The notes beneath the pieces are model-generated. The model was not told the DNA's origin. It saw only the letters and a list, made by a program, of their open reading frames with translations, and made no database searches. Shown in pieces: positions 6,298-34,186 of a stretch of 64,000 nt of DNA; position 1 is the first letter of the stretch; every line of letters begins with the position of its first letter. The translations under genes were made by a program, and so were the position numbers. This DNA comes from an uncultured Clostridia bacterium. Its GTDB lineage: Bacteria; Bacillota; Clostridia; Christensenellales; Aristaeellaceae. The stretch spans positions 1 to 64,000 of the forward strand of contig CAMVHE010000008.1 in assembly GCA_947167215.1 (NCBI GenBank). The letters run 5' to 3'.

Positions 6298-6329
6298 AAA
6301 AAGAGGCAGCACGCAAAATGTGCTGTCTC
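6298..6329 (-). terminator. Terminator closing the RiPP biosynthetic operon
   Basis: On the minus strand GAGACAGCAC, a 7-base loop, GTGCTGCCTC (one mismatch) and then TTTTT. It comes after the radical SAM gene and a short in-frame extension, and before the rhomboid gene. Confidence 0.85.
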
Positions 6330-6336
6330 CTTTGAT

Positions 6337-6453
6337 TCATAGGATTTCCAGCTTCCTCACCAAATGACAGAGGTTTTCGGAAAACACCTTTATTTTTCCT
6401 GTTAAGGGATTCAGAGGAAAAACGCCATGCCCGTTATCCTTCAGATATCTCAT
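6337..6453 (-). CDS. Possible 38-residue small protein or in-frame tail of the radical SAM gene
   Basis: After the TAG that ends the radical SAM gene (6520-6522) the same reading frame stays open for 60 more codons and ends with TGA at 6337. Within it an ATG at 6453 would start a 38-residue protein, MRYLKDNGHGVFPLNPLTGK and onward. No clear ribosome binding site precedes this ATG. The stretch looks protein-like, with balanced composition. It may be a separate small gene, a former C-terminal domain cut off by a TAG mutation, or chance. Family not recognised. Confidence 0.3.
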   Translation of the reverse strand: MRYLKDNGHGVFPLNPLTGKIKVFSENLCHLVRKLEIL

Positions 6454-6519
6454 GGCCTCATTTCCATCATCCGGACACGGGCATGTCTGCCATCGGAGAA
6501 CAGCAGGCTTTACGCCAGT

Positions 6520-7533
6520 CTATCTCAAAACATATTCATTCAGCTTCCAGGCCGTACACGGTTCATGTCCCTTGTAAATGCCACCATACATTTTATCCGT
6601 GATGGCAATGCACGGCCTGCAGTATTTCTGCAGGCTGCACCCGCTGCACGGTTCCCGCAGATCCTCTTCAAAATGCCGGATTTTCTGGATCAGTTCGGAT
6701 TTTTCAAGATATTCATCCAGGCTGCTGAAATCTTCGTAATAATCGAGATGTCTGCAGGGAGAATAATGGCCTTCCGTATTTACGCTGTAGATGTAAATTC
6801 CGGCTCCGCATCCCCGCGTAGGTCCCGAATTGAAATTTCCAATCCATCCGTAGTTGTAAACCAGTGCACGGAGCGGAGAAAAGCAGGCTTCCGGGACAAT
6901 GTCTACCTTGCCATGATATGCATGGATAAAGTCGGATATCTGCTTCATCTGCTCCCCGGAAGGATAGCTGGACAGACAGTCCTTGGCATCCGGTTTGAAC
7001 ATGATGATATCAACCGTCTGAATGTTGTATTTTTCTGCCAATGCAACAATGTTCGGAAAATCATCCGTATTATTCGAATGCATAACCCAGTTGATGTAGC
7101 TGTTCGGGAAATGGTTCTCGCTGAGTACCTGCAGGCCATTGATCGCATATTGATACCCGTCCCTCGTAAGGGCATTGATTTCCTCCGTTGAACCGTTTAA
7201 GGAAATGCAGATGCCGGTCACGCCGGCGTCCACCAGCTTTTTCAGCACTTCACTGTCAAAATGCCATCCCGAGAGAGCTACATTGACATTCTCGACTTTC
7301 CCTGCGGCATATTCGATAAGCTCATACAGATATGGATAGCAGAGGGTCTCCCCGCCGCTCAGGCTTACCGTGATTGCCCCATGGTCTGCAGCTTCCCTGA
7401 TGCGCGCTTTTGCCACTTCCGGATCAATATGCTTTCCGCCTTCCAGATGGCAGTAACACTGCGGGCACCGCAAGGGGCAGCTGTTTGTCAGTTCCACATT
7501 GATGCTTACAATCTGATTATCTTTCACGTCCAT
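6520..7533 (-). CDS. Radical SAM / SPASM-domain peptide maturase
   Basis: 337-residue radical SAM enzyme. CxxxCxxC (C19, C23, C26) binds the catalytic 4Fe-4S cluster, and LSGGETL is the SAM-binding motif. The C-terminal part carries a SPASM-like Cys set (GCGAG, SPCRHLDY, CSGCSLQKYCRPC, EPC), which holds auxiliary iron-sulfur clusters in peptide-modifying enzymes. The start at 7533 has AAGGAA upstream. It is 57 bases after the YcaO gene and last in the operon with the Nif11-type precursors, so a role in modifying their cores is likely. The chemistry (crosslink, epimerisation or other) cannot be told. Confidence 0.85.
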   Translation of the reverse strand: MDVKDNQIVSINVELTNSCPLRCPQCYCHLEGGKHIDPEVAKARIREAADHGAITVSLSGGETLCYPYLYELIEYAAGKVENVNVALSGWHFDSEVLKKLVDAGVTGICISLNGSTEEINALTRDGYQYAINGLQVLSENHFPNSYINWVMHSNNTDDFPNIVALAEKYNIQTVDIIMFKPDAKDCLSSYPSGEQMKQISDFIHAYHGKVDIVPEACFSPLRALVYNYGWIGNFNSGPTRGCGAGIYIYSVNTEGHYSPCRHLDYYEDFSSLDEYLEKSELIQKIRHFEEDLREPCSGCSLQKYCRPCIAITDKMYGGIYKGHEPCTAWKLNEYVLR

Positions 7534-7590
7534 AACCGATTCCTTCCGATATCTTGCCGTCCCCCGGTACATGCGGGTCCGCGAAATGGA

Positions 7591-9381
7591 TCACGGAATC
7601 AGCCGGGACAGCAGTTCCTCCTGGGAAACTTTGCTCTCAGCCATTGCCTTTTTAATCCTGCGCATGATTTTTTCCACGGTCGGATAAGTACAGGCACTGC
7701 CGGCATAGTCACAGGATGCACAGTCATAACACCGGACCGGTCTGAACATCTTTCGAAGTGCCAGCGCCGGCTCTTTCAGCAGGTCATCCACCTTTTTTAC
7801 GATTTCTTCCGGATAATAGGTACGGATTACAGCCTCTGTCTCGCCGCTCTCCATCCCGCCTGCGCGCAATCGTACATATTCCGCCGCACAGGCATAGAAC
7901 CTGCGGTCTTCTTCTCTCGATTCCGTAGAAGCAAGGTGGCGGAATCCGTCCATCGCATCGCTGTACCTGCCGTCTTTATACAGTAGCAGAATCAGAATCT
8001 TTTTGGTCATGACATCTTCATCTGCAAAGGGAATGCCCGAAAACCAGGAAATGTTATTTTCCAGGATGGATTCTCCCTTAAACAGGATAAGCGTCTTTAA
8101 ACGCTTTTCCTCCGCTTCACTCAGGTCAGGGAAATGAAGCATTGATTCCCTTGCCCGGGCAATCGTCCGGATTTCCCGGATATGCTGCTCGGTGATCGGG
8201 AAAATCTCACTCATCCCGGGTACCAGCACCTGATAGGACGGGAACCCAAGATGGGAAACATCACGGATCAAAACACTGTATCCTTCGTTCTTTATGATGT
8301 TTAACAGCTTAAACATCATTTCCCGGTTGGACAGCTTCTGCCATCCTTCCCGGCTTTCAAAGGGATAGTCCGGCTTTCCAGCCAGAAAACTTGCCGGATA
8401 AGAGCCATATCCCATTTTCGTCAGATTGGCAATATTCTCCCTGTGCTGGCAGACCTTGTCACTGTCGATCCGGTTCATGGAAGTAAAAGATTCCAGATTC
8501 TTTCCCTGCAGTGCCTCTGTCAGGGTTCTCTCCACGGACACTTCAAAAGAAGGATGGCAGGAGAAGTGTACGCCAAAGCACCCGCGTTCCCGGTCAACAA
8601 TCACGACTGCCGTTGCGGGGATCCCTTTTCCAAGGGAACAATCCCTCAAAGAGACACGGTATCTTCCGGACTCTTCAATTTTGCGGATCAGGCTGCCGAT
8701 TTCCAGGCAGTCAATATATTCCCTTGGTACTTCCGGCGGAACAGTCCCCCGAATGATCTCTACGTTTGCATACCTCTCCAGTATCTCGGAAAGGCCCTGC
8801 ACCAGTGCTTCTTCGAGAGTATTTCCGGCAGCCATGCCATTGCTTCCATAAAAGTTCAGCAGCAGTTCCAATGGAAGATAAATGATCCGTTTCCGGTCCA
8901 TATCCACGTAGGGAACGCACCGGATCAAGTCATCTTTCCCATTGATATTCCACATTGGTTCCCGCAGGAAAGCAATTTTATCCTCCAGACGTTCGATCTG
9001 AAGTTCTCTGAAGAGGAATTGAAAGAAAGGATCATCCTGCAGGGCAACAGTTTCCGCTGAAACCTCCACTTCATCCGGAGACCGGACAAAGCCGCCCTCT
9101 TTCTGTAATTCCGGGGACTCCCTGCTTAAGGAAAGCATCCCATTCTGAATACGCTCAATTAATTCAGCATATCCGCTTGCCAGAGCGTATGCCTGATCTG
9201 TCCCTTTTCCATTTGTTCCAAGTGATGAAGGATAAATCGACACCCTGTTCGACAGCGCACCGTCATATTCTGCATCAATCCAGTTCACCACCGGAAGGAG
9301 TCCCATCTTTCCTAAAATCTGATCAATTGTATGTATGGTCTCCTGCGGGGTTCGCTCTTTGAATTTATTATATTCATACAT
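7591..9381 (-). CDS. Stand-alone YcaO-domain protein with C-terminal Cys cluster
   Basis: 596 residues. The YcaO ATP-binding signatures are visible: SGYAELIER (E73, E76, R77) and EEALVQGLSEILER (E191, Q195, E199, E202), with a third Glu-rich stretch VERTLTEALQ. YcaO enzymes use ATP to activate peptide amides, giving azolines, thioamides or amidines. No E1-like/ThiF partner, TfuA or dehydrogenase gene lies nearby, so this one acts alone or with the radical SAM enzyme. After the YcaO core there is a helical, TPR-like part and a CxxCxxCx6C cluster (C551, C554, C557, C564) that could bind Zn or Fe-S. The PxPxP tail of azoline-forming YcaOs is missing. Confidence 0.85.
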   Translation of the reverse strand: MYEYNKFKERTPQETIHTIDQILGKMGLLPVVNWIDAEYDGALSNRVSIYPSSLGTNGKGTDQAYALASGYAELIERIQNGMLSLSRESPELQKEGGFVRSPDEVEVSAETVALQDDPFFQFLFRELQIERLEDKIAFLREPMWNINGKDDLIRCVPYVDMDRKRIIYLPLELLLNFYGSNGMAAGNTLEEALVQGLSEILERYANVEIIRGTVPPEVPREYIDCLEIGSLIRKIEESGRYRVSLRDCSLGKGIPATAVVIVDRERGCFGVHFSCHPSFEVSVERTLTEALQGKNLESFTSMNRIDSDKVCQHRENIANLTKMGYGSYPASFLAGKPDYPFESREGWQKLSNREMMFKLLNIIKNEGYSVLIRDVSHLGFPSYQVLVPGMSEIFPITEQHIREIRTIARARESMLHFPDLSEAEEKRLKTLILFKGESILENNISWFSGIPFADEDVMTKKILILLLYKDGRYSDAMDGFRHLASTESREEDRRFYACAAEYVRLRAGGMESGETEAVIRTYYPEEIVKKVDDLLKEPALALRKMFRPVRCYDCASCDYAGSACTYPTVEKIMRRIKKAMAESKVSQEELLSRLIP

Positions 9382-9473
9382 ACCTTAATTCCTCTGTAAT
9401 CCGTTCAAATAAAGAATATCCCGAACCATTCATTCATATCGGAAAAAAACCGGCATCATGTAATGATTTTTAT

Positions 9474-9500
9474 TCCCCTCTGCCTAAGGCAGAGGGGAAA
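9474..9500 (-). promoter_or_regulatory. Strong hairpin between last precursor and YcaO gene
   Basis: TTCCCCTCTGCC / GGCAGAGGGGAA, a perfect 12-base inverted repeat with a 3-base loop, 11 bases after precursor 1. No T-run follows in either direction, so it is not a standard terminator. It fits an mRNA-stabilising or partial-attenuation hairpin that keeps precursor levels above enzyme levels. That function is an inference. Confidence 0.7.
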
Positions 9501-9510
9501 GAAATTATAA

Positions 9511-9795
9511 TTACCAATAAGAAGCAAACTTTGCAACGGTCTTGACGGCGGGTTTCAACCAGCCCCAGCTGAAGCCGCCGGCTACATCTTCGAGATCGTC
9601 TTCGCTCAGTTCGGAGGAAGTCATCTTTTCCTTCAGGGCATACATTTCTTTGCCTGCTTCGAGGATCTCATCCATCGTGAACTCATAGCCGTTCTCCGCC
9701 AGGCATTTCTGAGCGTCTTCGGGCTTCATGGGTGCTATCTTATCCAGCAGTTCTGCATTCTCAAATACTGGTTTCCATTTCTCGCTAAGTGCCAT
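9511..9795 (-). CDS. Nif11-type RiPP precursor peptide 1
   Basis: 94 residues. A 74-residue Nif11-like leader (MALSEKWKPVFENAELL..., DEILEAGKEMYALKEK, ELSEDDLEDVAGG) ends in a double-Gly site for C39 peptidase. The 20-residue core is rich in Trp and Lys (WGWLKP, VKTVAK) and ends SYW, with three Lys and no acidic residue or Cys. It could fold as a cationic amphipathic helix. Likely substrate of the downstream YcaO and radical SAM enzymes and of the NHLM exporter. A GGAGG site precedes the ATG at 9795. Confidence 0.9.
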   Translation of the reverse strand: MALSEKWKPVFENAELLDKIAPMKPEDAQKCLAENGYEFTMDEILEAGKEMYALKEKMTSSELSEDDLEDVAGGFSWGWLKPAVKTVAKFASYW

Positions 9796-10056: not shown

Positions 10057-10347
10057 TTACCAAGCAGAAAGGATCTTTCCAACCGTCTTGCAGACCTTTT
10101 CCACCGTGCCCCAGTTAATCCTGACTCCGCCGGCCACATTCTCCAGGTCGTCATCATTCAGTTCTCCGGAATCCATCCGCTGACGGATGGCATACAGTTC
10201 TTTTCCTGCTTCAAGGATCTCGTCAAGGGTGAAATCATAGCCGTTTTCGGCAAGAACCTTCTGTGCTTCTTCCGGCTGCATCGGAACAACCTTCATCGCA
10301 AGTTCTTCATTTTCAAATACTGGTGCCCATTTTTCGCTCAGTGCCAT
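10057..10347 (-). CDS. Nif11-type RiPP precursor peptide 2
   Basis: 96 residues. The leader is nearly the same as in precursors 1 and 3 (MALSEKWAPVFENEELAMKV..., LDEILEAGKELYAIRQ, DDDLENVAGG), with the Gly-Gly site at residues 73-74. The 22-residue core starts VRINWG, contains one Cys (KVCKTV) and ends SAW. It has four Lys/Arg and one Glu. The start at 10347 is preceded by AAGGAG. It lies in one operon with precursors 1 and 3. Confidence 0.9.
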   Translation of the reverse strand: MALSEKWAPVFENEELAMKVVPMQPEEAQKVLAENGYDFTLDEILEAGKELYAIRQRMDSGELNDDDLENVAGGVRINWGTVEKVCKTVGKILSAW

Positions 10348-10455
10348 TTTTCATTACTCCTTTTTTAGATTTTTAGATTTCCCTATTCTGTTGAAGCCCT
10401 TCCATGCTTTTCCCCTGCGTTCTGTCCATAAAAGGCAGCCCGCAAAACATAGAGG

Positions 10456-10740
10456 TTACCACCTTGAAAGAGCTTTGGCAGCACATTGAACAACAATTCC
10501 TATTACGAAGATGCTGACTCCTCCGGATACGTTCTCCAGATCCTCTTCATCAATCTCTCCGGACAGCTGCTGATTGCGGATGGCATACAGCTCTTTTCCT
10601 GCTTCCAGAATTTCGTCCAGGGTGAATTCAAAACCATTCTCCGCAAGGACTTTCTGCGCCTCTTCCGGCTGCATCGGAACAATTTTCTTTGCGAGCTCCT
10701 CGTTTTCAAATACCGGGGTCCATTTTGCACTCAGTGCCAT
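10456..10740 (-). CDS. Nif11-type RiPP precursor peptide 3
   Basis: 94 residues, starting at 10740 (MALSAKWTPVFENEELAKKI), which matches the starts of precursors 1 and 2; GGAGGAGGAAG lies upstream. The leader ends DEEDLENVSGG at residue 74. The 20-residue core is more hydrophobic (FVIGIVV), has one Cys (VQCAAK) and ends SRW. First gene after the ECF-like promoter at 10843-10869, so it heads the precursor-YcaO-radical SAM operon. An in-frame extension 27 codons upstream has no family support. Confidence 0.9.
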   Translation of the reverse strand: MALSAKWTPVFENEELAKKIVPMQPEEAQKVLAENGFEFTLDEILEAGKELYAIRNQQLSGEIDEEDLENVSGGVSIFVIGIVVQCAAKALSRW

Positions 10741-11039: not shown

Positions 11040-11345
11040 TTAAGTCCTTCCTCCGCCGCCATGAAAGCGGTTTCCCCGGAGCAGCCGGGAAGCTGTCCAG
11101 CCCAGGAGCCAGAAACTCGGGCCGGCACCTCCGGAAACATTTTCCAGCACGTCCTCGCTTAATTCCCCTTCTCCGGGGTCTGTCATCTCTGCCAGTTCCC
11201 GGAGCAGCTGTTCCGCCTCCGCGGCATCTGCTTCCTCCCCATATTCAGCGAGCAGTGCCCGGAAGGCTTCCTTGTCCTCACATTGGTTCGCCCTTTCGAT
11301 AAACATCGGCTCACTCAGAAAGGAAAGGCTTTTTTTCTCACTCAT
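11040..11345 (-). CDS. Divergent Nif11-like RiPP precursor peptide 4
   Basis: 101 residues, starting at 11345 after AAAGGAG. The N-terminus (MSEKKSLSFLSEPMFIERAN) differs from the other three, but ELSEDVLENVSGG is the same leader end with a double-Gly site at residues 72-73. The 28-residue core begins AGPSFWLLGW and finishes with a basic, Gly-rich tail (RGNRFHGGGGRT), not with Trp. It lies 52 bases after the LRR gene, so it belongs to the transport operon and not to the operon of precursors 1-3. It may be a second product or a signal peptide. Confidence 0.78.
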   Translation of the reverse strand: MSEKKSLSFLSEPMFIERANQCEDKEAFRALLAEYGEEADAAEAEQLLRELAEMTDPGEGELSEDVLENVSGGAGPSFWLLGWTASRLLRGNRFHGGGGRT

Positions 11346-11397: not shown

Positions 11398-14300
11398 TCA
11401 ATACCGCTTGTACTGATATCTCTTCTGGAGGAATCCTCCGTCATCCTTGAGCCAGTCTCTGGAGAAATGTTTCTTGCTGTAGAGATTATTCCAGTCAGAT
11501 TCCACTCCGAGGAGGATGAATTCCTTGCCGTTTTTGTTGTAAATGTTCTGGACAATCCGCTCTCCGACGTAATCCAGGGAACGCGGGAGAACAATCTTCG
11601 TAATGGCTTCGCAGTCCTTGAAAGCCCTTGCTCCAAGATGCGTAACGCCGATGTACTTGTTCCGTTCTCCTTCCATCTTTCCCTCCGGGAGTTCCATGCC
11701 CGTCAGCTTCTTGCACCCCATGAATGCTTCGTCACCGATTTTTCTCAGGGAAAGCGGTATCTCTATCGTCGTGATTTCCGTGCAGTCACTGAATACGCCG
11801 TTTCCAAGTTCTTCAATGCCGTCCTGAAGCGTGATGCTTACAAGTCCCGAACATCCCTTGAAAACATTGTTTCCAACCACACGGACATTCTGCTTGATCA
11901 GCAGTTCCCGTGCCCGCGTGCATCCTTCAAAGGCGCCGTCGCCGACGGTATTCGCATTGAGTTCAATTTTATCCAGCTTGGTACAGTCGAGGAAAGCATC
12001 CCGTCCGATCGAGCTGACGGTATCCGTCATCACGACATTCACCAGGGACTCCCATTTCTGGAATACTCTGTCCGGAATCGCCGGGGTATCAATCTCCAGC
12101 GTTTCTATTCCGGCAAGGCCGCTGAAGGTGTTCATTTCAAACGGCACACCGATGGTCAGGGTTTTGAGGTTCGTGCAGTCCTGGAAGATCTGGTTGCCCA
12201 CCGCAGCTGCATTCGGCCTCAGGATCGCTGTATCCATCCGGTTGCATCCGCGGAATGCATAATCGCTGACCGCTGTCACTGAGCCGCCGAGGTTCACCGA
12301 GCGGAGCGCTGTGCAGTCCATAAAGGCGGAATCGCCGATTCTTACATCACCCCACTGGGGAAGTGTAATTCCTTCGATGGAAGAACAGCCGGCAAATGCA
12401 TTTCTTCCTATAATGCACGGATCGCTCATTCCAAAGGAAACGGAGCGGACGGTGGTGCATTTTTCGAATGCACTGATGCCGATATCCAGTGCGGCACCTG
12501 CCGGGAAATCCACAATCTCCAGGGCAGAGCATTCGGAAAAAGCTTTCGAACCGATGTTCAGTGCCTTCCTCATGGGGAAGGAAACCGTTGTCAGCCTGGT
12601 GCAGCCGGAGAAAGCGCTTTCTCCCAGGGTTCCAATGGAATCGGGAAGCGTCAGCTGCGTCAGCGCAGAACAGCCGGAAAAGGCAAATGCACCGATGGAC
12701 TCCACCTTTTCCCCGAGTTTCAGGTTTTTGAGGTTGGAACAGCCGGAGAAGGTTCCTTCCGGAACTTCGCTGGTATCAATATCCAGTGTTTCCAGGGAAG
12801 TCAGGCCGGAAAAAGCATCGGCTGTAAAGGGAACGGTAAGCCGGAGCGTTTTCAGGCTGCTGCACTCCAGGAATGCCTTGTTCCCGATCGTCGTCTGGGT
12901 TCCATGGAAAGAAACATTATCCATGGCGGTGCAGCCCCGGAATGCATAGGCGCCAACCGAGGAAATCGCGTCCGTTACATCCACGCCCAGCAGTGCGCTG
13001 CATCCGGAGAACGCAGCATTCCCGAGGCTGATATCGCCGTACTCCGGGAAGGAAATCGATTCCATGGAAGTGCATCCCGTGAAAGCGTTGTTTCCAACCA
13101 CGCAGGGATCGGACATCCCAAAGGATACCGAGTGGATGGCAGTGCATTTTTCAAATGCGTTGGCACCGATGTCCAGAGCAGCTCCTGCCGGGAAATCTGC
13201 AGCCTGCAGTGCCGTACATTCCGAGAATGCCTTTGTGCCGATACTCAGCGCACGCTTCATGGGGAAGGTGACGGAGGCCAGACGTGAGCATCCGGAGAAA
13301 GCGCTTTCTCCCACGGATTCAATGGCATCTGGGAGCGTCAGCTGGGTAAGCGAAGAGCATCCCATGAAGGCAAATTCTTCTATGGTCTTAACAGAATCTC
13401 CCAGCTTCAGGTTTTTCAGATTTGTACATCCGGAAAAGGATTTGGAAGGAATCGTCTGTGCATCCACTTCGAGGGTTTCCAGGGAAGCAATGCCCGAAAA
13501 CGCATCTTCCGTAAAAGGTACCGTCAGCTTCAGCGTCTTGAGGCTGCTGCACTCCATAAAGACCTTGTTTCCAATGGAGGTGTTCGAACCATGGAAGGAA
13601 ACGCTGTCGAGGGCGGTGCAGCCCCGGAAGGCATAGGAACCAACGGAAGAAATGGCATCCGTTACATCCACGCCCAGGAGGGCAGTGCAGCCGGAGAATG
13701 CAGAATTGCCGATCGTAATACTGCCGTTGCTGGGGAAGGTAATGGTCTCGATGGCAGTGCACCCCGTAAAGGCGCCGCTGCCGATATCCGTCTTCTGGTT
13801 CTCCGTGAAGGCCATCTTTTTCAGTGCCTTGCAGCCGGAGAAAGCATCATTGCCGATCATGGCAGCTGCCTGTTCGGGAAGCGTGACTTCCCGCAGCGCG
13901 GTACATCCGTTGTAGGCATTATCCCCGATCATAATCGGAATGTTCGCAGGGAAAACCACTTTTTCCAGTGCCGTGCAGTTTCCGAAAGCATTGTTTCCAA
14001 CCTGCAGCAGCTTTCCCGGCAGATCAATGCTGACCAGCGCGGAACATCCGTTAAATGCATTGTCGCCGATGGCAGTCAGCGTTTCCGGAAGCGTAATGCT
14101 GTTCAGCGCCTTGCAGCCGTTAAAGAGGTTGTCTGCAACCTTTGTCATGCCGTTTCCGATCTGCACGGTTTCGAGTGCCGTACAATTGCGGAAAGCGGCC
14201 GTCTCGGGGCTCATGTTCAGCTCCAGGTTGACAAATGCGGTGCAGCCGGAAAAACAGCCCAGTCCCAGTTCGGACACGCCCGAACCGATCGTGACATCCT

Positions 14301-26318: not shown

Positions 26319-27173
26319 TCAGAGTGCAACAACAATATGAAGCAGGTCTCCTCCCTGCACCGGCGTTCTTTCATGCTTCAGCTGTTCCAGGCAGGCCTTT
26401 CTCATTTCTTCCGCACTGCCCCACCGCTGATCCGGCGTCAGCATCAGCCCCTTCTCCAGAATAGGCCTCCATCCTTCCGGTACAACGCTCATATCCATAT
26501 TCAGGCAGCGTATGGCACGTTCCGGCGCAGAAGGCGGCACGGTACCGGACAGTACCGCATACAGGGATGCACAAAGGCTGTAAATATCCGTTCTTCCGTC
26601 TTCCCTGCCGAAACCGGAATACTGCTCCAGTGCCGCATACCCGTTTTCCGGCATGTCCCGGAATCTTCCCGAGGCCGATTTAAAAAACGGAATCCGCATG
26701 CCGTCCAGTCCCAGTATCCCCATGTGGTCATCATAATAAATGTTTCCCGGAGAAATGCCGCGGTGGATCCATCCGGCAGCATGCAGATGCTGCAATTCCG
26801 CCAGCAGGGCAGGTACTGCCGCCAGCATTCTGGCCGTTTCCGGCCGTCTCTGTTCCAGCGACATTCCGCACGGTGCAGCCAGGACTGCCCAGCAGGCTTC
26901 CTCATTTTTCACCAGGTCGCATATGCTGCAGACGTTTGCAATGCCCCGGATAGAAGCAATTGCCCGGACCTGTGCGACAAATTCATCGGCGGTCAGTTTC
27001 CCCTCATCCGGAGTATACTGCAACAGCCGCACCTGACGGTCTGACTTTCTGTCTGTCCCTGCATAGACGCGGCACATTCCGCTGGAAGAAAGCTGCCCCG
27101 TGATCTCATAGCGTTCCCCGAGCAATGTTTTCTGCGTAAAGGGAATGGCATCCCTGCAATCATTTTCCTTCAT
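26319..27173 (-). CDS. Protein-kinase-like protein, probable pseudokinase
   Basis: 284 residues with a Ser/Thr-kinase fold: a glycine-loop remnant (GQLSSSGMCRVYAG), helical C-lobe and the APE-like YAALEQYSGFGREDGRTDIYSL segment that aligns with the kinase at 28415. Key residues are lost: the beta-3 Lys position reads VRLLQY, HRD is HRG (Gly139), and DFG reads DGM. No C-terminal membrane helix. The ATG at 27173 comes one base after the PP2C stop, suggesting translational coupling. It may sense ligand or bind the phosphatase. Weak residual activity cannot be excluded. Confidence 0.8.
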   Translation of the reverse strand: MKENDCRDAIPFTQKTLLGERYEITGQLSSSGMCRVYAGTDRKSDRQVRLLQYTPDEGKLTADEFVAQVRAIASIRGIANVCSICDLVKNEEACWAVLAAPCGMSLEQRRPETARMLAAVPALLAELQHLHAAGWIHRGISPGNIYYDDHMGILGLDGMRIPFFKSASGRFRDMPENGYAALEQYSGFGREDGRTDIYSLCASLYAVLSGTVPPSAPERAIRCLNMDMSVVPEGWRPILEKGLMLTPDQRWGSAEEMRKACLEQLKHERTPVQGGDLLHIVVAL

Positions 27174-27174
27174 C

Positions 27175-27912
27175 TCAATCACCACCAGAGGACTGAATCA
27201 TCGCTGCAACGGCCGTATTATTATCTGTATCCTTTCCATAGCGTCTCAGCAGAATCTCCCGCATGCGTTCCATCCATGTTTTTGCATTATCCGCGTTTTC
27301 CAGTTCAGCAAGCATCTCCCGTTCATAAATCAGTTCCCAGAACCCATCGCTGCATAGAAGAAATGCATCCCTGGGCATGACATCCAGTTCATCCGTATCA
27401 ATTTTTACATTGGGCGCCGCCCCGATTGCCCGGATCAGAATACTCCGGTCCTGGTGGCCGCGGATTTCATCCGGCGAGATTTCTCCCACCATCGCGGCAA
27501 TCTGGCTTGCACTGTGATCTACTGTCTGATACAGAATCCCGCCGTTCCGGAACTGATAGATCCGCGAATCCCCGACATGGGAGGCAATGGCTTTCTCTTT
27601 TCCGATCCACAGCGCGGCAATGGTTGTTTTCATGCGTTTGCCGCCCTGGTTCAATTCGAGAATTTTCTGGTTTGCCTCTTCAATGGCGGCTTCCAGCGCT
27701 TCCGTGCTGACCTCGTGTTCATGCAGAAGTTTATCCTGGAGCGTTTTGATGGTCATTTCCGATGCCGTTTTCCCGTCGCCACATCCGCCTAACCCGTCTG
27801 CAACCATCAAAAGCACCGTATGCTCTCCGATCATCATGCAGAGCGAATCCTCGTTCTGCCTCCGTGATCCGATATCGCTGTAAGGGGTAAGGCTGACACT
27901 CATGCTGCTCAT
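27175..27912 (-). CDS. PP2C-family Ser/Thr protein phosphatase B
   Basis: 245 residues with PP2C metal-binding motifs in order: RRQNEDS, MVADGLGGCGDGK, ASHVGDSRIY, DHSASQ, LLCSDGFWE and DNNTAVA. The acidic residues for two metal ions are kept, so it should be active. It overlaps the leader-like gene by ATGA and the pseudokinase follows one base later. It is paralogous to the phosphatase at 31758-32483 along its whole length. It would reverse phosphorylation by the locus kinase, for example on FHA-bound targets or the STAS protein. Confidence 0.92.
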   Translation of the reverse strand: MSSMSVSLTPYSDIGSRRQNEDSLCMMIGEHTVLLMVADGLGGCGDGKTASEMTIKTLQDKLLHEHEVSTEALEAAIEEANQKILELNQGGKRMKTTIAALWIGKEKAIASHVGDSRIYQFRNGGILYQTVDHSASQIAAMVGEISPDEIRGHQDRSILIRAIGAAPNVKIDTDELDVMPRDAFLLCSDGFWELIYEREMLAELENADNAKTWMERMREILLRRYGKDTDNNTAVAAMIQSSGGD

Positions 27913-28106
27913 TTTTTCCCGTCTCCTTTAGGGATTTCTGGCCATTCCGGCGCCTTGCTCGCAGCTGCAACCCATTCCAGCTCATCTTCACTGAGCTCCT
28001 GGAGCCGGTTTTCTGTCTCTGCCAGCAGACGGGATAACTGGTCATCCTGTGGAGAAAAACGCTCCATTTCTCCCAACAAAGTCAAAAGCGCCTCTGTTTT
28101 TTTCAC
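27909..28106 (-). CDS. Small leader-peptide-like protein
   Basis: 65 residues from a GTG at 28106, chosen because AAGGAGGGGGAG lies just upstream; an ATG 15 codons earlier has no ribosome binding site. The end of its helical part, LQELSEDELEWVAAA, closely resembles the ELSEDDLEDVAGG leader end of the precursors, but Gly-Gly is replaced by Ala-Ala. A 17-residue acidic/Pro-rich tail follows. It may be an uncleaved leader mimic acting as regulator, chaperone or kinase partner. It is preceded by the same ECF-like promoter as the precursor operon and overlaps PP2C by ATGA. Confidence 0.7.
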   Translation of the reverse strand: MKKTEALLTLLGEMERFSPQDDQLSRLLAETENRLQELSEDELEWVAAASKAPEWPEIPKGDGKK

Positions 28107-28156
28107 GTCATTCTCCCCCTCCTTTCGCGATGCAAAACGCTCATCCTTCATTTGTC

Positions 28157-28414: not shown

Positions 28415-30610
28415 TTACTTCACAATGCGGACGCTTTCCGCTGCGGTCACAAGCTGCAGCTCATCTTCGTCCGTCCAGTTCCCTGACCAGTCGATCATTG
28501 CAACCGAGACATAGAACCCCGGCAGTCCCGCTATGATTTCATGCAGCGGCTCACTTGCATTCTCCTTATTGATATAGTACTGCGCAAAGTAGCTCTTCCC
28601 GGACAGCTCCCGTTCCTCTCCGTTGATGTACTCCACTTCCAGGCTCTTTTCAATTTCCGTGGTTTCCCTCATCTTCGCAAGAACGTTTTCAATGGAGCCT
28701 TCCCTCTCCAGCAGGGTGTGCAGATTTCCGTCAAAGTCTTCCTCGGACGGAATAATGCACATTACCCACCATGTGTGCATTGAATTTGCAACATCTGCTG
28801 ATTCTTCGGCATAGATATCGTAGCCCGCCTGGCTTTCCTGCACGAAAAGTCCTGCCGGAAGCACAATCTCCAGGGTGCCGTAATCGCCCAGGTCCGCTTC
28901 ATACAGAGCAGTGGGAGCAGAAGATACTTCCGTTGATGCCCCGCGTGCAACATCCTGCTGCGGTACTGTCAGCAGATTTGCAAGCGAATTGACCACGGAC
29001 TTCTCCGGCGTCGGTGTGAGTTCCGGGACCGGCGTGGGTGTCGGCGTCGTTGCCGGAGATGGCGTCGGCGTCGGCGTCGGCGCCGGGGATGGCGTCGGTG
29101 TCGGTGCCGGAGACGGCGTGGGCGTCGTTGCCGGAGATGGTGTGGGTGTCGGTGCAGGGGATGGCGTCGGCGTCGCTGCCGGAGATGGTGTGGGTGTCGG
29201 TGCAGGGGATGGCGTCGGCGTTTCAACTGCCGGTGTTGCTGTGGCCGGGGATGCTGTCGGCTGAACCTCCGGACGTTTTCCGAGCTTCGGCACGATCAGA
29301 ATGGATCCCAGGATGATTACTGCAATGATAATCAGCGCCACAAGGATTCCCTGTACCATCAGCTGCTTCCGTTTTTTCTTTTCGGCTTCTTCCTGCTCCC
29401 GCTTCTTCTTCTCCTCTGCAGCCCGGCGTGCTTCCGCTTCCCGTCTTCTCTGCTCTTCCTGTCTTTTCCGGACTTCCGCTTCCTGTCTCTTTCGTTCTTC
29501 CTCTTCCTGTCTTCTTCGTTCCTCTTCCCGACGTTTTCGTTCCAGCTCCTCCGCCTGTCTCCGAAGTTCTTCCTCCTTGCGGCGGGTTTCTTCTTCCTGT
29601 CTTTTCAGTTCTTCCGTCCTGCGGCGGGTTTCCTCTTCCTGTTTCCGAAGTTCTTCCTGCCTTCTCAGCTCTTCGGCTCTCCGGCGTTCTTCCTCGTCGT
29701 CCCCTTCCAGCACCGTTCCGCTGATCGTTGTCCGGATTGCCCTGGTAAGGCGTGCTGCCATAATCTGGGCCGACGCATACCGTTCCTCCGGCCGGAGGGA
29801 CATGGCCTTCATGATCACCTTGTCCACTCCGGGAGTTGTATCCGCCCCTACCTCCGAAGGCATTTTGACATCATCTTTGAAAACCCTGTCCGGTGCGCTC
29901 TCCGGCACGATTCCCGTCAGGCAGTAGTACATCGTGGCACCAAAGGCATAAATATCCGTCCACGGTCCCTGTTTTCCATGCATGGAATACTGTTCATGCG
30001 GCGCATATCCATGTTTCAGCATCACCGTCAGGCTGTGATTGCCCTCCACCGCCCGGCTGGCGCCGAAGTCATACAGCTTCAGCGTATTATCCGGCATCAG
30101 AATGATGTTGTCCGGGCTGATATCGCGGTGAATCAGTCCCAGCCGGTGCACGCTGTCCAGCGCCTGCAGCAGCGGGATCGCCAGCGGAATCAGTTCCTTT
30201 TCCGAAAGCTGGCCCCTTTCATCGGTCAGCTTTTTCAGGGTAATGCCCTGAAGGAACTCCATGACGATGTACGAGGTGCCATTGGCATCAAAGAAGTCCT
30301 GCACCCGGACAATCTGCGGAATGTGTGCGCATTTCGCCAGCAGGCGCGCCTCCCCGAGGAATCGCTCCCGCCATTTTCCAAAGTCCGACCCGATTTTTCC
30401 GCCGGTCATGGAAACATGAACGGAAACGCTGTTATTGCGGTTTGCATATCCCCGCGGAAAGAATTCCTTTACTGCTACTTCAATATCCAGTATTTTATCG
30501 TGTGCCCGGTAAGTGATGCCGAATCCTCCCTGCCCCAGCACATCTTCAATGATATATCGCTCCTGAATCTCCGTTCCCGGTTTTAATACCCATTGGTCCT
30601 GATCAATCAC
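28415..30610 (-). CDS. Membrane Ser/Thr protein kinase with Pro-Thr stalk
   Basis: 731 residues from a GTG start after AGGTGAG. The N-terminal kinase domain is complete: LGQGGFG loop, Lys48 in VAVKEFF, HRD with Asp163, DFG with Asp181 and TDIYAFGA. Then come a long charged coiled coil (about 310-430; EERRRQEEE-type), one membrane helix ([20 protein letters not shown]), an outside Pro-Thr-Ser repeat stalk and a C-terminal domain of about 180 residues without a recognised family. It looks like a receptor kinase whose outer domain senses a signal. Its targets may be the FHA-bound proteins in the locus. Confidence 0.9.
29010..29235 (-). repeat. Pro-Thr-Ser coding repeat in the receptor kinase gene
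   Basis: Tandem units such as GGCGTCGGCGTC and GCCGGAGATGG encode PTPTPSPA on the minus strand. It forms the extracytoplasmic stalk. Third example of this repeat type in the locus. Confidence 0.85.
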
Positions 30611-30696: not shown

Positions 30697-31743
30697 TCAG
30701 AGGATTCCCGAGTCCGTGTCCAGCCAGATAACAGGCCGAACGAAGTTCTCCGTAATAATGACGCTTCCGCTTTCCAGGGAACCATATGGGGACACATACG
30801 ACGCCCGGTTCTGGTATTCGCCGGGTGAACGCAGCCACCAGTGGCAGGCGCCATTGCTTCCTGTCAACGCGGCTCTTGCCTTTGCCCTTGCCGTCAGCTG
30901 GCAGATTCTGTCGCTGTCGGATGCAAAATATTTATTTGCCTCTGCATAGCTGAGAAGGAAAACATTATCCGAAGTGCTGTTTCCTCCGTAGGAGGCATAG
31001 CTGCTGTTTCCCGCGGCCCCGGAATTATCCGTGGTCATCGTCAGGATGGCCTTTCTCTCTTCCGAGTTGAATGCAGTCCGGAGGAAAGTGTTGTTGAGCC
31101 AGTAGCGCAGCGAACAGTCTTCCCATGTAATGCTTGCATACTCCCTGTTATACGGTCTTGACTCAAGCCCGAAGCGGCTGATCACCAGCGCTTTGTTTCC
31201 CTGCACTTCCAGTACCAGCCACTCAATGGGGTCCATTCCGTTTGCCGTATTGTTATCCTGCTCATACCGGCCGAAACGGATGATATCGCCCACACGGACG
31301 GCACCGTTTCCCTGCACCTGTGCACTCTGATTCTGGGAAGCCTGCACAGAAGCTGCAGAGGAAGCGCCGGTATTGCCGGAACCGGATGCCGCTTCCAGGT
31401 CGGCAAGATACTGTCTTACCTCCCCCGGCGTCATTTCCTGCACCGTTTCTGCCCGCACATAACCCAGCATCCCGGTATCATAGCTGACGTAGATCCACCA
31501 TTGTCCCTGTTCATCCGTCAGGAGCTCCTTCAGTTCAACTACGTCTCCCTTCTGAAGCTGGCAGCGGATAAATGCATTCTCCTCCGGTGTTGCGAGAAGT
31601 CTGCTTCCTCCCTCCTGAACGCGGCCGTAACCATTCAGCAAGACCGGCTCCGGAGTAGGAGTTGCAGCGACTTCCCGTTTAAGTGCCTCTGCCGGCATGA
31701 AAAAGCAGGCCATTATCAGGAACAAAAAGCAAAAGCGTCTCAT
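30697..31743 (-). CDS. Secreted SH3b protein with DUF6273-like domain
   Basis: 348 residues. Signal peptide (MRRFCFLFLIMACFFMPAEA), SH3b-like domain (about 35-110), Ser/Gln-rich linker (about 120-145), then a DUF6273-type domain (VGDIIRFGRYEQD, IEWLVLEVQGNKALVISRFG, CHWWLRSPG), which is common in surface proteins of gut Clostridia. The first 115 residues match the SH3b/FN3 protein at 23582-25576, showing duplication. Its ATG lies 14 bases after PP2C A. Role unknown; probably a surface binding protein. Confidence 0.82.
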   Translation of the reverse strand: MRRFCFLFLIMACFFMPAEALKREVAATPTPEPVLLNGYGRVQEGGSRLLATPEENAFIRCQLQKGDVVELKELLTDEQGQWWIYVSYDTGMLGYVRAETVQEMTPGEVRQYLADLEAASGSGNTGASSAASVQASQNQSAQVQGNGAVRVGDIIRFGRYEQDNNTANGMDPIEWLVLEVQGNKALVISRFGLESRPYNREYASITWEDCSLRYWLNNTFLRTAFNSEERKAILTMTTDNSGAAGNSSYASYGGNSTSDNVFLLSYAEANKYFASDSDRICQLTARAKARAALTGSNGACHWWLRSPGEYQNRASYVSPYGSLESGSVIITENFVRPVIWLDTDSGIL

Positions 31744-31757: not shown

Positions 31758-32483
31758 TTATCCAACTATTGCAACTGCAGCGGTATTATTATCACTCTGA
31801 TAATCTCTTCTCGCTTCCACAATCTTTACCATTCTTTCGAGCCACTGGTCCGCATTGTCTGCCCCGTTCAGCGCATCAATCATCTCTTCTTCCAGGATCA
31901 GCTCCCAGAAGCCGTCGCTGCACAGCAGGAATCCGTCTCCCCTGCAGACATCCAGACTGTCGGTATCCATTTTGTCTCCGGAATCCGCTCCCAGTGCACG
32001 AAGCAGCACATTTCTTTCTTCATGCCCCCGGATCTGGGAAGGGGTGATCTCTCCAAGCTTGACCGCCAGCTGGCTCATGCTGTGGTCTTCCGACTGGTAA
32101 TATACACTCCCCTGCCGGAACTGGTAGATTCTCGTGTCTCCCACGTGGGATGCCAGGGCACGGTTCCCATAGATCCAGAGAGCAGTAATCGTACTTTTCA
32201 TGCGTTTATACTGCGTCTGCTGCCGGAGGATCCGTCCGTTCGCTTCCCGGATGGTGCTTTCAAGGCGGTCCTCATCGAACAGCATGCTGGCATCATATGC
32301 CTCTTTCATGCAGGCAATGGCAATACCGGATGCGACCTCTCCGTTTCCGCATCCGCCCAGACCGTCGGCCACGGCAAGAAATGCCGTATTATCCCTGATC
32401 CATGCACCAACGGAGTCTTCGTTTACTTCCCGCCCGCCGCGATCCGTAAATGTTGCAACGGTAATACGGCTCTGCTCTGTCAT
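31758..32483 (-). CDS. PP2C-family Ser/Thr protein phosphatase A
   Basis: 241 residues from the ATG at 32483 (MTEQSRITVATFTDRGG), preceded by GAGGAGGAG. PP2C motifs REVNEDS, AVADGLGGCGNGE, ASHVGDTRIY, DHSMSQ, LLCSDGFWE and DNNTAAV are intact. A longer in-frame start 12 codons earlier is less likely. It is paralogous to the phosphatase at 27175-27912 and lies upstream of the SH3b/DUF6273 and receptor kinase genes, so it is the natural partner of that kinase. Confidence 0.92.
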   Translation of the reverse strand: MTEQSRITVATFTDRGGREVNEDSVGAWIRDNTAFLAVADGLGGCGNGEVASGIAIACMKEAYDASMLFDEDRLESTIREANGRILRQQTQYKRMKSTITALWIYGNRALASHVGDTRIYQFRQGSVYYQSEDHSMSQLAVKLGEITPSQIRGHEERNVLLRALGADSGDKMDTDSLDVCRGDGFLLCSDGFWELILEEEMIDALNGADNADQWLERMVKIVEARRDYQSDNNTAAVAIVG

Positions 32484-32591
32484 ACTGCTCCTCCTCTGCT
32501 GATTCTCTTTCAACTGCACCGGCTTCTCTTCTGAAACCGTTTTCTTCCATGGTGTCCCGCCCTGTAGCCGGCGGTCTTCTTCAGGGGATTT

Positions 32592-33437
32592 TTACCCACA
32601 CGAGGGATAGATGCATTCCAGTGTTTCCCAGAGGTCCGCGCCCCGATCCGTCTCCGAAAGGCGCATCTCCGCTTCCCGGATCAGGTCCCGGGCCCTCGCT
32701 TCCGCGTTCTGCAGGTCATCTCCCGCATAATGCTGAAGCCTTCCGCCGGGTCTGAAAGTCTCCCCCTCCAGCCCCAGGAAGCGCAGGGCAAGAAGGCGGT
32801 CATAAGTGCCAAAGGCAGCCAGAAGCCCGATGCAGTCCGCATAGATTTCATCCCTCAGTGCATCCTTATCCTCCGGCCATTTTCTCTGACACACAAAATG
32901 GCAAAGTTCATGATATTTGCGGATTTCAATGGAACTGGCCTGCCAGGCTTCTGGGGTCATCCCCACATCTTCCGCCGGGATATCGCTGTACGGTCCTCCG
33001 CTCAGCAGGATCAGCGTATCGCAGTAGTTCTCCTTCCGGGATGTGAATCTGCGGAACTCTTCATTCCAGTCAAGGTTTCCTTCCGCCTCATACGCCTGTC
33101 TGTGCGCACGGATTTTTTCCCAGTTAATCAGTCCCCGGATAATCCCTGCCCCTACCGAAGGAAGGATCTCCACCGGTTCACACCGGTAGGCAAGCGCACG
33201 GTAGGCATGTTCAAAGTCCTGGCGGTCCGGCAGAACCACCACTTCCGCCGTTCCGGCCGGGGTCCGGATCTGCTCCAGCAGGACGTCCTCCGGCTTCAGA
33301 AAGCTCAGCTCCCTGCGCGGGGGATTCCCCCGGAGCACTGCATCCTTATATTCCTCTGTTTTGCTTTCGCCTTCTGCAATCGGCATCAGAAGCTGTGCAT
33401 AGCGTCGGGAAAGCATCTCCAGTATTTTCTCGGCCAT
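32592..33437 (-). CDS. Unknown protein with HExxH metallopeptidase-like motif
   Basis: 281 residues, starting at 33437 (MAEKILEMLSRRYAQ) with GGAGGAG upstream. It carries YHELCHFVCQRKW followed by DEIYADCIGLLAAFG, an HExxH motif with a Glu about 20 residues later as in gluzincin-type zinc proteins. No signal peptide or membrane helix, so it would be cytoplasmic. No family recognised. It lies between sigma factor A and PP2C A, about 190 bases after the sigma gene. It might process a regulatory protein, but the motif alone does not prove protease activity. Confidence 0.7.
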   Translation of the reverse strand: MAEKILEMLSRRYAQLLMPIAEGESKTEEYKDAVLRGNPPRRELSFLKPEDVLLEQIRTPAGTAEVVVLPDRQDFEHAYRALAYRCEPVEILPSVGAGIIRGLINWEKIRAHRQAYEAEGNLDWNEEFRRFTSRKENYCDTLILLSGGPYSDIPAEDVGMTPEAWQASSIEIRKYHELCHFVCQRKWPEDKDALRDEIYADCIGLLAAFGTYDRLLALRFLGLEGETFRPGGRLQHYAGDDLQNAEARARDLIREAEMRLSETDRGADLWETLECIYPSCG

Positions 33438-33625
33438 ACGATACTCCTCCATTCTTCCCGGTCCGGATCTTCCCGGAGCAGAAATCATTCCGATCCATGC
33501 TTTATCATAGCAAATCCAGGTTCCATTTACCAGACCGGCGCGCATTTTTTCCCGCCTTCCGGGACATCCTGCATGGCGCTGCCGGCCGGCGGCTGTACGG
33601 ACGGGCACCTTTTCCCTCCGCCGCA

Positions 33626-34186
33626 TCATTCCCCCAGGTCAGAGAGCATCTCTTCCATCCTGTCCAGTGCGCGGGACAGCCTTGTCCTGACTGCACCGGC
33701 CGCAATCCCCATCCGGTCCGCAATTTCCTGCGCAGACAGTCCATGAAACCATTTCATTATCATCATTTCGCGGGTATCTTCGGGAAAACCAAGCAGTGCT
33801 TCCGCTACCCGGCTGCGGATTTCCGTCATACAGGCCGCCTGGTATGCCGGGTCATTTTTCGTTCCGAGAAGGTCTCCCAGGGAATCCAGGTCCACATACT
33901 CCTGCCTGTCCCGCACTGCATTCTTCCACCGGCTGATGGCAATCATGAAAATCCAGGTGGATTCACTGGCCCTTTCCGGATCATAGCGGTCATAATGCTG
34001 CCATGCATACAGAAAGGTCTGGGAAGCAATATCCTCTGCATCGGAAACGCTGCTGCACCTGCTGCTCAGATAATGCAGAACTTTGGAATACCATGCACGG
34101 TAAAAGTCCTCAAAGGGACGTTTTGCTCTGGGAACGGTTGTCTGCTGTCCGGGCGTGCCCGGAAAAGAAAGCACTTTTGTCTTCAT
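33626..34186 (-). CDS. ECF-type RNA polymerase sigma factor A
   Basis: 186 residues. Region 2 (FEDFYRAWYSKVLHYLSSR, DAEDIASQTFLYAWQHYDRY, STWIFMIAISRWKN) and region 4 (FPEDTREMMIMKWFHGLSAQEIADRMGI) are clear. It is paralogous to sigma factor B (22756-23271). First gene of the accessory locus, with a good ribosome binding site (GGAGGTCATACC) and a TATAAT about 175 bases upstream. No anti-sigma gene follows, which suggests control by another route, for example phosphorylation by the locus kinase. Confidence 0.9.
   Translation of the reverse strand: MKTKVLSFPGTPGQQTTVPRAKRPFEDFYRAWYSKVLHYLSSRCSSVSDAEDIASQTFLYAWQHYDRYDPERASESTWIFMIAISRWKNAVRDRQEYVDLDSLGDLLGTKNDPAYQAACMTEIRSRVAEALLGFPEDTREMMIMKWFHGLSAQEIADRMGIAAGAVRTRLSRALDRMEEMLSDLGE

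What the first reader, a model, noticed from the sequence alone, without database searches (positions are those of the whole stretch)
6298..34186. A 28-kb minus-strand locus joining Nif11-type RiPP production, NHLM export and a full phospho-signalling set
Seen: sigma A, HExxH protein, PP2C, SH3b/DUF6273, receptor kinase, leader-like protein, PP2C, pseudokinase, SH3b/FN3, sigma B, HlyD-like, C39-ABC, second ABC, STAS, TIR-FHA-FHA, LRR lipoprotein, four precursors, YcaO, SPASM radical SAM, terminator; all one strand, many stops and starts overlapping. Known: each family exists, and NHLM transporters go with Nif11/nitrile-hydratase leaders (Haft and colleagues). Inference: this is one functional system in which export or peptide production is gated by Ser/Thr phosphorylation and ECF sigma factors.
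Basis: partly seen in the sequence, partly recalled or inferred. Interest (0 to 1): 0.9.

Follow-up and report, generated by a model that had tools for sequence, protein, structure and literature searches.

The report
Peptide exporter with built-in phospho-signalling
Bacteria related to gut Clostridia carry a recurring gene block in which a machine that trims and exports small modified peptides comes with its own protein kinase, phosphatases and phospho-readers, plus a small protein that looks like a peptide's export tag with the cutting site replaced, which suggests, but does not yet show, that export is switched by signalling.

Summary
In detail: 22 minus-strand genes (34186 to 6520) encode a Nif11/NHLM peptide exporter, four leader peptides, YcaO, radical SAM, two sigma factors, a Ser/Thr kinase, a pseudokinase, two PP2C, STAS and TIR-FHA-FHA. 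The neighbourhood is not accidental. On an exporter tree every locus with FHA, kinase or PP2C falls in one clade of 18 loci (FHA 10, kinase 9, PP2C 6; 0 of 71 rows outside), and six more clade genomes carry STAS-TIR-FHA on another contig. All four full-length TIR-FHA-FHA genes in 308 family genomes sit behind ABC2-STAS. But 13 exporter loci of the same genus lack these genes, so the signalling marks a subtype. New here: the 'leader-like protein' belongs to an unnamed family that keeps the residues by which C39 peptidases grip leaders but has Ala-Ala where Gly-Gly is cut (61 of 61 members above 30 bits). A sigma gene lies beside it in 33 of 40 loci read, and 73 of 82 genomes with it have an NHLM exporter. 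Model: kinase, PP2C and FHA gate the exporter, and the leader mimic reports its state to transcription. The gating is inferred, not shown.

The parts
33626..34186 (-). ECF sigma factor A (keeps DAED motif)
   Evidence: Pfam Sigma70_r2 and r4_2; alignment
32592..33629 (-). DUF7005 protein with HELCH (HExxH)
   Evidence: PF22541 223 bits; 16 ORFs, window included, in the scanned loci
31758..32519 (-). PP2C phosphatase 1, metal-binding motifs intact
   Evidence: PF13672; alignment
30697..31743 (-). exported SH3b (weak match) + DUF6273 protein
   Evidence: PF19789 104 bits, PF08239 18.4 bits below cut-off; in L070 DUF6273 is fused to a kinase
28415..30610 (-). receptor Ser/Thr kinase, active-site motifs intact (VAVK, HRD, DFG)
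   Evidence: PF00069 108 bits; alignment
27909..28151 (-). leader mimic: leader motif L-12, E-8, L-7, V-4 kept, AA at -2,-1 instead of GG; overlaps PP2C2 by 4 bases
   Evidence: no Pfam or NCBIfam family
27175..27912 (-). PP2C phosphatase 2, metal-binding motifs intact
   Evidence: PF13672; alignment
26319..27185 (-). pseudokinase (HRG and LDG in place of HRD and DFG, no VAIK lysine)
   Evidence: PF00069 20 bits, below cut-off; alignment
23582..25576 (-). exported SH3b + FN3 protein
   Evidence: PF08239, PF00041
22756..23271 (-). ECF-like sigma factor B (DAET in place of DAED)
   Evidence: Sigma70_r4_2; sequence
21747..22688 (-). short NHLM HlyD adaptor
   Evidence: TIGR03794 103.7 bits, below cut-off
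19597..21744 (-). NHLM ABC1, C39 peptidase-ABC exporter
   Evidence: TIGR03796 974.6 bits
17005..19581 (-). NHLM ABC2
   Evidence: TIGR03797 729.9 bits
16631..17002 (-). STAS-domain protein
   Evidence: PF01740
14979..16634 (-). TIR-FHA-FHA protein; phospho-Thr-binding residues of the second FHA conserved
   Evidence: PF13676, PF00498 x2; R443, S458, H461, N479 invariant in 8 of 8
11398..14982 (-). LRR lipoprotein (lipobox VTGC)
   Evidence: PF13306 LRR_5 712 bits; start codon and lipobox by eye
11040..11345 (-). Nif11-type precursor 1 (divergent)
   Evidence: TIGR03798 16.7 bits, below cut-off; own HMM; start
10456..10740 (-). Nif11-type precursor 2
   Evidence: TIGR03798 30.1 bits; start with ribosome-binding site
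10057..10347 (-). Nif11-type precursor 3
   Evidence: TIGR03798 32.1 bits
9511..9795 (-). Nif11-type precursor 4
   Evidence: TIGR03798 36.0 bits, over cut-off
7591..9381 (-). YcaO-domain enzyme, E. coli YcaO-like
   Evidence: PF02624 176.6 bits; NF040716 225 bits, below cut-off
6520..7572 (-). radical SAM/SPASM-like enzyme
   Evidence: PF04055 78.6 bits; NCBIfam matches all below their cut-offs in the 25 shown
6307..6325 (-). terminator-like hairpin

Best explanation
This is a phospho-regulated subtype of the Nif11/NHLM peptide exporter. Shown by sequence: a recurring module of exporter (HlyD, C39-ABC1, ABC2), sigma factor, STAS and TIR-FHA, often with kinase and PP2C, with Nif11-leader peptides in most cases and with variable maturases. 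Inferred: the receptor kinase and the exported SH3b, LRR and DUF6273 proteins sense an envelope or neighbour signal; the kinase puts phosphate on Thr of a partner at the exporter; the second FHA domain of TIR-FHA-FHA binds that phospho-Thr and, with STAS, switches the exporter; the PP2Cs reset it. Also inferred: the small leader mimic docks on the C39 domain as a leader does but cannot be cut at Ala-Ala, so it holds or reads the exporter and passes its state to the sigma factor or the phospho-module. Exporter readiness would thus be coupled to peptide gene expression, as FlgM does for the flagellum by another route (FlgM recalled).
For: Conserved synteny in other genera. On the ABC1 tree (90 rows, quick method) all FHA, kinase and PP2C loci fall in one 19-row clade (18 loci, SH-aLRT 98): FHA 10, kinase 9, PP2C 6 of 18 on the exporter contig, each 0 of 71 rows outside (Fisher for FHA 9e-9). 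Six more clade genomes carry STAS-TIR-FHA on another contig, four of them next to the leader mimic; FHA presence then needs 3 changes on the tree. Full-length TIR-FHA-FHA: 4 of 308 family genomes, all 4 directly behind ABC2-STAS. FHA2 residues R443, S458, H461, N479 invariant in 8 of 8; the domain aligns to the Rad53 FHA1 domain (its phospho-Thr contacts recalled). Leader mimic, 61 unique members of 30 bits or more: AA 61, Leu-12 59, Val/Leu/Ile-4 59, Leu/Met-7 48; these are positions that a C39 domain grips (PMC6363468, passages). In the predicted model the motif lies in a helix (55-64; mean pLDDT 72, pTM 0.29). Sigma gene adjacent and co-directional in 33 of 40 loci. Genomes with the mimic: 73 of 82 have an NHLM exporter against 70 of 226 without it (p 1e-20; within-genus CMH z 6.7, on the 250 of 308 genomes with an inferred genus).
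Against: No interaction, substrate or phospho-site is shown. Kinase and PP2C are seen in only 9 and 6 of the 18 clade loci (flanks are limited); Schaedlerella (L102) shows no PP2C. STAS lacks the usual serine context in most FHA-type loci, so it may be a scaffold. Only 11 of 40 leader-mimic loci have ABC1 within the stretch read, though six loci already seen at an exporter were left out of those 40. AA is part of what the search model looked for, so 61 of 61 is partly by construction; an N-terminal-only model gave AA in all 64 listed hits, but within loci found with the full model. The co-occurrence counts genomes by HMM hit; the hit protein was examined in 50 of the 82. One search shows FHA genes elsewhere in all 14 control genomes. 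The mimic's model has no defined tertiary fold (pTM 0.29).
Confidence: 0.5

Rival explanations
1. The signalling genes control only transcription: the kinase/PP2C/STAS/FHA relay acts on the sigma factors, and the exporter is merely one target of the regulon.
For: A sigma gene lies beside HlyD in 17 of 18 clade loci (the 18th contig starts inside ABC1); the leader mimic lies beside sigma in 33 of 40 loci; sigma B has DAET where relatives have DAED-like motifs, and phosphorylation of Thr at that site activates ECF43 sigmas (PMC8999054, passages).
Against: Sigma A and the clade sigmas beside HlyD keep acidic residues there. In 4 of 4 family genomes STAS-TIR-FHA sits directly behind ABC2 rather than beside the sigma.
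Confidence: 0.3
2. The neighbourhood is accidental: two or three unrelated operons lie in a row.
For: A gap of 742 bases and a promoter-like site split the run in two; 13 same-genus exporter loci lack signalling.
Against: The same genes recur with the exporter in other genera and track one exporter clade.
Confidence: 0.04
3. TIR, kinase and PP2C form an anti-phage defence module that travels with the exporter.
For: PADLOC models match the TIR protein (37.6 bits), the kinase (PD-T4-6, 177.8 bits) and the PP2Cs (58-64 bits); Glu at the recalled TIR catalytic position is kept in 9 of 11.
Against: Kinase models of this kind match Hanks kinases in general (inference); no NAD-sensing effector among the 22 locus proteins scanned with Pfam; TIR is missing in L075/L080 and lacks the Glu in L071 and L114, while FHA2 residues stay.
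Confidence: 0.08
4. The small leader-like protein is just a peptide precursor with an unusual cleavage site.
For: Same C-terminal motif as Nif11 leaders, followed by a tail of about 10-20 residues in most.
Against: Ala-Ala instead of Gly-Gly in 61 of 61 (with the bias named above); sits with sigma, PP2C or STAS genes.
Confidence: 0.15

Closest known systems
NHLM/Nif11 peptide export systems (Haft, Basu and Mitchell 2010, PMC2887384, passages read)
   Same: ABC1 and ABC2 over curated cut-offs, Nif11 leaders with Gly-Gly, maturases nearby. That paper already notes a large Ser/Thr kinase beside NHLP-Burk precursors in Burkholderia.
   Different: Adds kinase, PP2C, STAS, TIR-FHA-FHA, sigma factors and a leader mimic as a recurring set; the word sigma does not occur in that paper's main text.
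Threonine phosphorylation pathway of type VI secretion (PpkA, PppA, Fha; PMC3953482, abstract read)
   Same: Ser/Thr kinase, PP2C and FHA protein encoded with a secretion machine; there the FHA protein reads phospho-Thr of a machine part.
   Different: The machine is a peptide ABC exporter of Clostridia; TIR and STAS domains, sigma factors and leader mimic are not part of the pathway as described in that abstract.
ECF43-type sigma factors activated by phosphorylation (PMC8999054, passages)
   Same: ECF sigma encoded near a Hanks kinase.
   Different: Sigma A keeps DAED; only sigma B departs (DAET).
C39 leader recognition by LahT150 (PMC6363468, passages)
   Same: Hydrophobic residues at -4, -7, -12 and an acidic residue at -8 are mostly kept in the leader mimic.
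   Different: Ala-Ala at the cleavage pair.

Membership tests
NHLM/Nif11 export system | C39-ABC1 of TIGR03796 | tested here: met
   974.6 bits, cut-off 853.3
NHLM/Nif11 export system | ABC2 of TIGR03797 | tested here: met
   729.9 bits, cut-off 709.4
NHLM/Nif11 export system | HlyD of TIGR03794 | tested here: inconclusive
   103.7 bits, cut-off 156.2; short form
NHLM/Nif11 export system | Nif11-leader precursors ending in Gly-Gly | tested here: met
   One of four over cut-off, two just under, one at 16.7 bits; GG in all four sequences
T6SS threonine phosphorylation pathway | kinase, PP2C and FHA protein with intact motifs | tested here: met
T6SS threonine phosphorylation pathway | T6SS apparatus genes | tested here: not met
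   No Tss family among Pfam hits of the 22 locus proteins; the rest of the genome was not searched
T6SS threonine phosphorylation pathway | phospho-Thr on a machine part bound by FHA | not testable with these tools
   needs phosphoproteomics and a binding assay
ECF43 phospho-activated sigma factor | acidic DAED motif lost | tested here: not met
   Sigma A DAED; sigma B DAET is the one partial case
TOMM (thiazole/oxazole) cluster | SagD-type YcaO | tested here: not met
   TIGR03604 52.5 bits, cut-off 219.25
Thoeris-type TIR defence | TIR protein paired with an NAD-sensing effector (recalled) | tested here: not met
   No such partner among the 22 locus proteins scanned with Pfam
FlgM-like exporter-coupled anti-sigma factor | small protein binds sigma and is removed through the exporter (recalled) | not testable with these tools
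   Only co-encoding with sigma and the leader-like motif are shown

The most novel reading that the evidence does not exclude
A widespread family of 60-80 residue proteins imitates the export leader of RiPP precursors but cannot be cut, and serves as a sensor that reads whether the peptide exporter's peptidase site is free. It passes this to its co-encoded ECF sigma factor, or in this locus to a kinase/PP2C/FHA relay. That would be a new kind of exporter-coupled regulator.
Probability: 0.35. Interest if true: 0.88.

Novelty: new variant of a known kind. Interest (0 to 1): 0.76.

Why it matters
Phospho-Thr gating of a secretion machine is known from type VI secretion; here similar parts are attached to an unrelated peptide exporter of Clostridia. 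It gives a concrete hypothesis for when uncultured gut and rumen Clostridia release RiPPs, and the leader mimic offers a testable link between exporter state and transcription. Two named isolates carry the STAS-TIR-FHA-kinase module beside the exporter: Schaedlerella arabinosiphila DSM 106076 and Flavonifractor sp. An112.

Tried and rejected
Phospho-activated sigma factor as the general mechanism: rejected, because acidic residues are kept in the clade sigmas beside HlyD. N-terminal extension of ABC2 as a phospho-receiver specific to this subtype: rejected, because it is found in NHLM ABC2 outside the clade too. TIR as a conserved NADase: not settled; Glu at the recalled catalytic position in 9 of 11. 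Defence module: see rivals. Plasmid origin: no near match of 6300-24000 in PLSDB. Nif11 as the necessary partner of the signalling: weakened, because Schaedlerella and Flavonifractor have the module but no TIGR03798 match in the whole genome at E 0.001. L086 and L119 show no precursor in the stretch read, but their genomes have TIGR03798 matches elsewhere. The PF07862 search of the own genome gave nothing, as that model scores these leaders low. Whole-protein PDB search of TIR-FHA-FHA only hit proline-rich and similar low-complexity stretches; domain searches worked better. Fold prediction of the leader mimic gave three helices with low pTM (0.29); I did not search it against structure libraries. 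Five more high-scoring ABC1 loci (G123, G230, G236, G145, G219) show no kinase, PP2C, FHA or TIR in the stretches fetched, one of them only 7.4 kb.

Rows dropped or limited: same-genus loci L031-L049 were first read with single-sequence searches and later with the HMMs. Three loci (L090, L139, L147) did not enter the tree. 29 of the 90 tree loci are under 15 kb, so absences there are weak. Of the 13 same-genus loci, three score under the TIGR03796 cut-off, and one contig is 6 kb. The 40 leader-mimic loci read with flanks were chosen from the 82 genomes and leave out loci already read at an exporter. The within-genus test used 250 of 308 genomes, whose genus I inferred from the order of handles.
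Full report
What is there. The window lies on contig C8 (65,987 bases) of a 3.83 Mb assembly in 204 contigs, 96% complete and 7% contaminated. Between a terminator-like hairpin at 6307-6325 and the start of sigma A at 34186 lie 22 genes on the minus strand. The exporter is a true NHLM type: ABC1 974.6 bits and ABC2 729.9 bits, both over their curated cut-offs; the HlyD is a short form below its cut-off. Four precursors carry the leader motif with Gly-Gly (one of four over the TIGR03798 cut-off), and the cores of three end in Trp. Genes overlap by 4 to 11 bases at five junctions; the longest gap is 742 bases. Flanking genes are ordinary (rhomboid, WG-repeat, GH127).

Is the neighbourhood accidental? 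First, against: within the same genus, 13 exporter loci (12 in other genomes, one more in this genome at contig C69) have no kinase, PP2C, FHA or TIR hit in what was fetched. So NHLM exporters live without the signalling set. Second, for: three other genera of the family carry sigma-HlyD-ABC1-ABC2-(STAS)-(TIR)FHA-LRR with kinases and Nif11 precursors, two of them also with PP2C. In one of them the kinases are fused to LRR_5, DUF6273 or FMN-binding domains; LRR_5 and DUF6273 stand in separate exported proteins here. In another the kinase has only a weak FN3 match (below cut-off).

I scanned these with HMMs seeded on the window and built an ABC1 tree of 90 rows by the quick method. All rows with FHA, kinase or PP2C fall in one 19-row clade (two rows are the same locus, so 18 loci; SH-aLRT 98). 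Counted on the exporter contig: FHA in 10 of 18, TIR 10, STAS 12, kinase 9, PP2C 6, sigma 17, Nif11 precursor 11, YcaO 1 (this window). Of 71 rows outside: FHA 0, kinase 0, PP2C 0, TIR 1 (L130, a long branch), STAS 16, sigma 17. Nine of the 71 are same-genus loci; they were scanned (no FHA, TIR, kinase or PP2C) and are not in the STAS and sigma counts. Fisher for FHA 9e-9. STAS and sigma are thus wider than the subtype; FHA, kinase and PP2C mark it.

Many gaps in the clade are contig ends. A search of those genomes found STAS-TIR-FHA for L077, L078, L091, L092, L097 and L099 on other contigs. For L078 the two contig ends share about 80 bases with one difference (by eye), so it is the same locus; for L077 the other contig runs from TIR-FHA and STAS into ABC2, which fits a split locus. 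For the other four the linkage to the exporter is not shown; two of them (L091, L092) also bring PP2C or a kinase. L082 has a TIR protein without a linked FHA, and L087 has TIR fused to LRR_5 with no FHA. With these, 16 of 18 loci have the FHA protein, and the pattern needs 3 changes on the tree.

The reverse test. The TIR-FHA-FHA profile searched in 308 genomes of the family gives full-length matches in four: this window, G045, G097 and G280. All four sit directly behind ABC2-STAS. The other listed matches cover only a part, mostly the TIR. In a sample of 396 genomes of the order, the only full-length match was the window.

Are the signalling parts intact? The kinase has its Lys, HRD and DFG; the second kinase-like protein has lost them and is a pseudokinase. 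Both PP2Cs keep the DGLGG, GDSR/GDTR, SDG and DNNT motifs. In the second FHA domain Arg443, Ser458, His461 and Asn479 are invariant in 8 of 8 relatives, despite 25-36% identity overall; the domain aligns to Rad53 FHA1, where the matching Arg, Ser and Asn bind phospho-Thr (recalled). So phospho-Thr reading is likely; the partner is unknown. The STAS protein lacks the usual serine context in most FHA-type loci (L114 keeps SSGG), while 7 of the 8 STAS proteins aligned from loci outside the clade have SSAG.

The leader mimic. It matches no Pfam or NCBIfam family. A profile finds relatives in the signalling loci, next to PP2C (window, L070) or directly before STAS (L087, L114, L119 and L283-L286; L114 and L119 are weak matches), and in four same-genus exporter loci directly before a sigma gene, overlapping it. 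In 61 unique members of 30 bits or more the two residues at the Gly-Gly position are Ala-Ala in 61, position -12 is Leu in 59, -4 is Val, Leu or Ile in 59, -7 is Leu or Met in 48, and -8 is acidic in 55. Work on the C39 domain LahT150 reports that residues at -4, -7 and -12 fill a groove of the peptidase and that leaders end in Gly-Gly, Gly-Ala or Gly-Ser (PMC6363468, PMC10885120; passages only). The grip is kept and the cut site is replaced. Caution: Ala-Ala is part of the model used to find them; a model of the N-terminal half alone gave 64 listed hits, all with Ala-Ala (58 by pattern, 6 by eye, one of these listed twice), but in loci already found with the full model. AlphaFold gives three helices, the last (55-64) over the motif, without a confident overall fold.

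The leader mimic beyond this locus. In 308 family genomes it is found in 82 at E 1e-5; 143 have an NHLM ABC1 at E 1e-150. Both: 73; mimic alone: 9; exporter alone: 70; neither: 156. Within genera the association holds (CMH z 6.7). The matching protein was examined in 50 of the 82 genomes, partly printed, partly by script. In 40 such loci, one per genome, read with up to 10 kb of flank, a sigma gene lies directly beside it in the same direction in 33 (gaps -101 to +7 bases; 13 of them exactly -4); ABC1 lies within reach in 11. So the pair mimic-plus-sigma is scattered in genomes that mostly own an exporter. That pattern suits a small protein that reads the exporter and acts on its sigma factor; it would also fit a sigma regulon that includes the exporter.

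Mechanism. Shown: recurring gene set, clade restriction, intact catalytic and phospho-binding residues, leader mimic with replaced cut site and sigma coupling. Inferred: the kinase senses an envelope signal; phospho-Thr at the exporter recruits TIR-FHA with STAS; PP2C resets; the mimic docks on C39 and couples exporter state to sigma or the phospho-relay. Signalling sits with the exporter even where no Nif11 precursor is seen: Schaedlerella and Flavonifractor have none by TIGR03798 in the whole genome, so their cargo must be another peptide or have a divergent leader.

Compared with what is known. The exporter is a member of the NHLM family. The regulation would work like the T6SS threonine phosphorylation pathway but is not a member of it, as no T6SS gene is in the locus. 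Haft and colleagues note a large Ser/Thr kinase beside NHLP-Burk precursors, so a kinase near such peptides has been seen before. I found no report of this set or of the leader mimic in six searches of open PMC papers (listings only, apart from the papers named); most subscription journals are not held.

Limits. The contig is in a bin with 7% contamination, and none of the 28 other genomes of the genus searched carries this subtype, so the host assignment could be wrong; the reading of the locus does not depend on it. Absences on short contigs are weak. Nothing here shows activity.

Noticed in passing
window 32592-33629; L073, L079, L082, L094, L103, L104, L110, L111, L124, L127, L129, L132, L133, L137, L141: DUF7005 (HExxH protein of unknown function) recurs beside NHLM exporters, also outside the signalling clade: a candidate accessory protease.
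   Followed up: partly
window 22756-23271: Sigma B has DAET where relatives have DAED-like motifs, and no region-2 Pfam match; it could be a direct kinase target.
   Followed up: partly
L132, L141, L125 (Peptococcaceae- and Syntrophomonas-type loci): Longer proteins ending in a leader-like motif with VAAG directly follow a sigma gene, two with a zinc-ribbon-like tail; possibly an older branch of the leader mimic.
   Followed up: no
L075 11821-14217: VWA-FHA protein beside the module in G231, another possible phospho-reader.
   Followed up: no
L048 (own genome, contig C69): A second NHLM-type exporter in the same genome (ABC1 798.5 bits, just below cut-off) with its own YcaO, radical SAM and three Nif11-like leader ORFs, without signalling genes.
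   Followed up: partly
L088, L094, L103, L104, L111, L118, L122: STAS proteins with an SSAG serine motif lie near NHLM exporters that show no kinase or FHA.
   Followed up: no
window 9511-10741: Cores of precursors 2, 3 and 4 all end in Trp, as do several relatives (for example in L073, L079, L082, L084); a possible site for the maturases.
   Followed up: no
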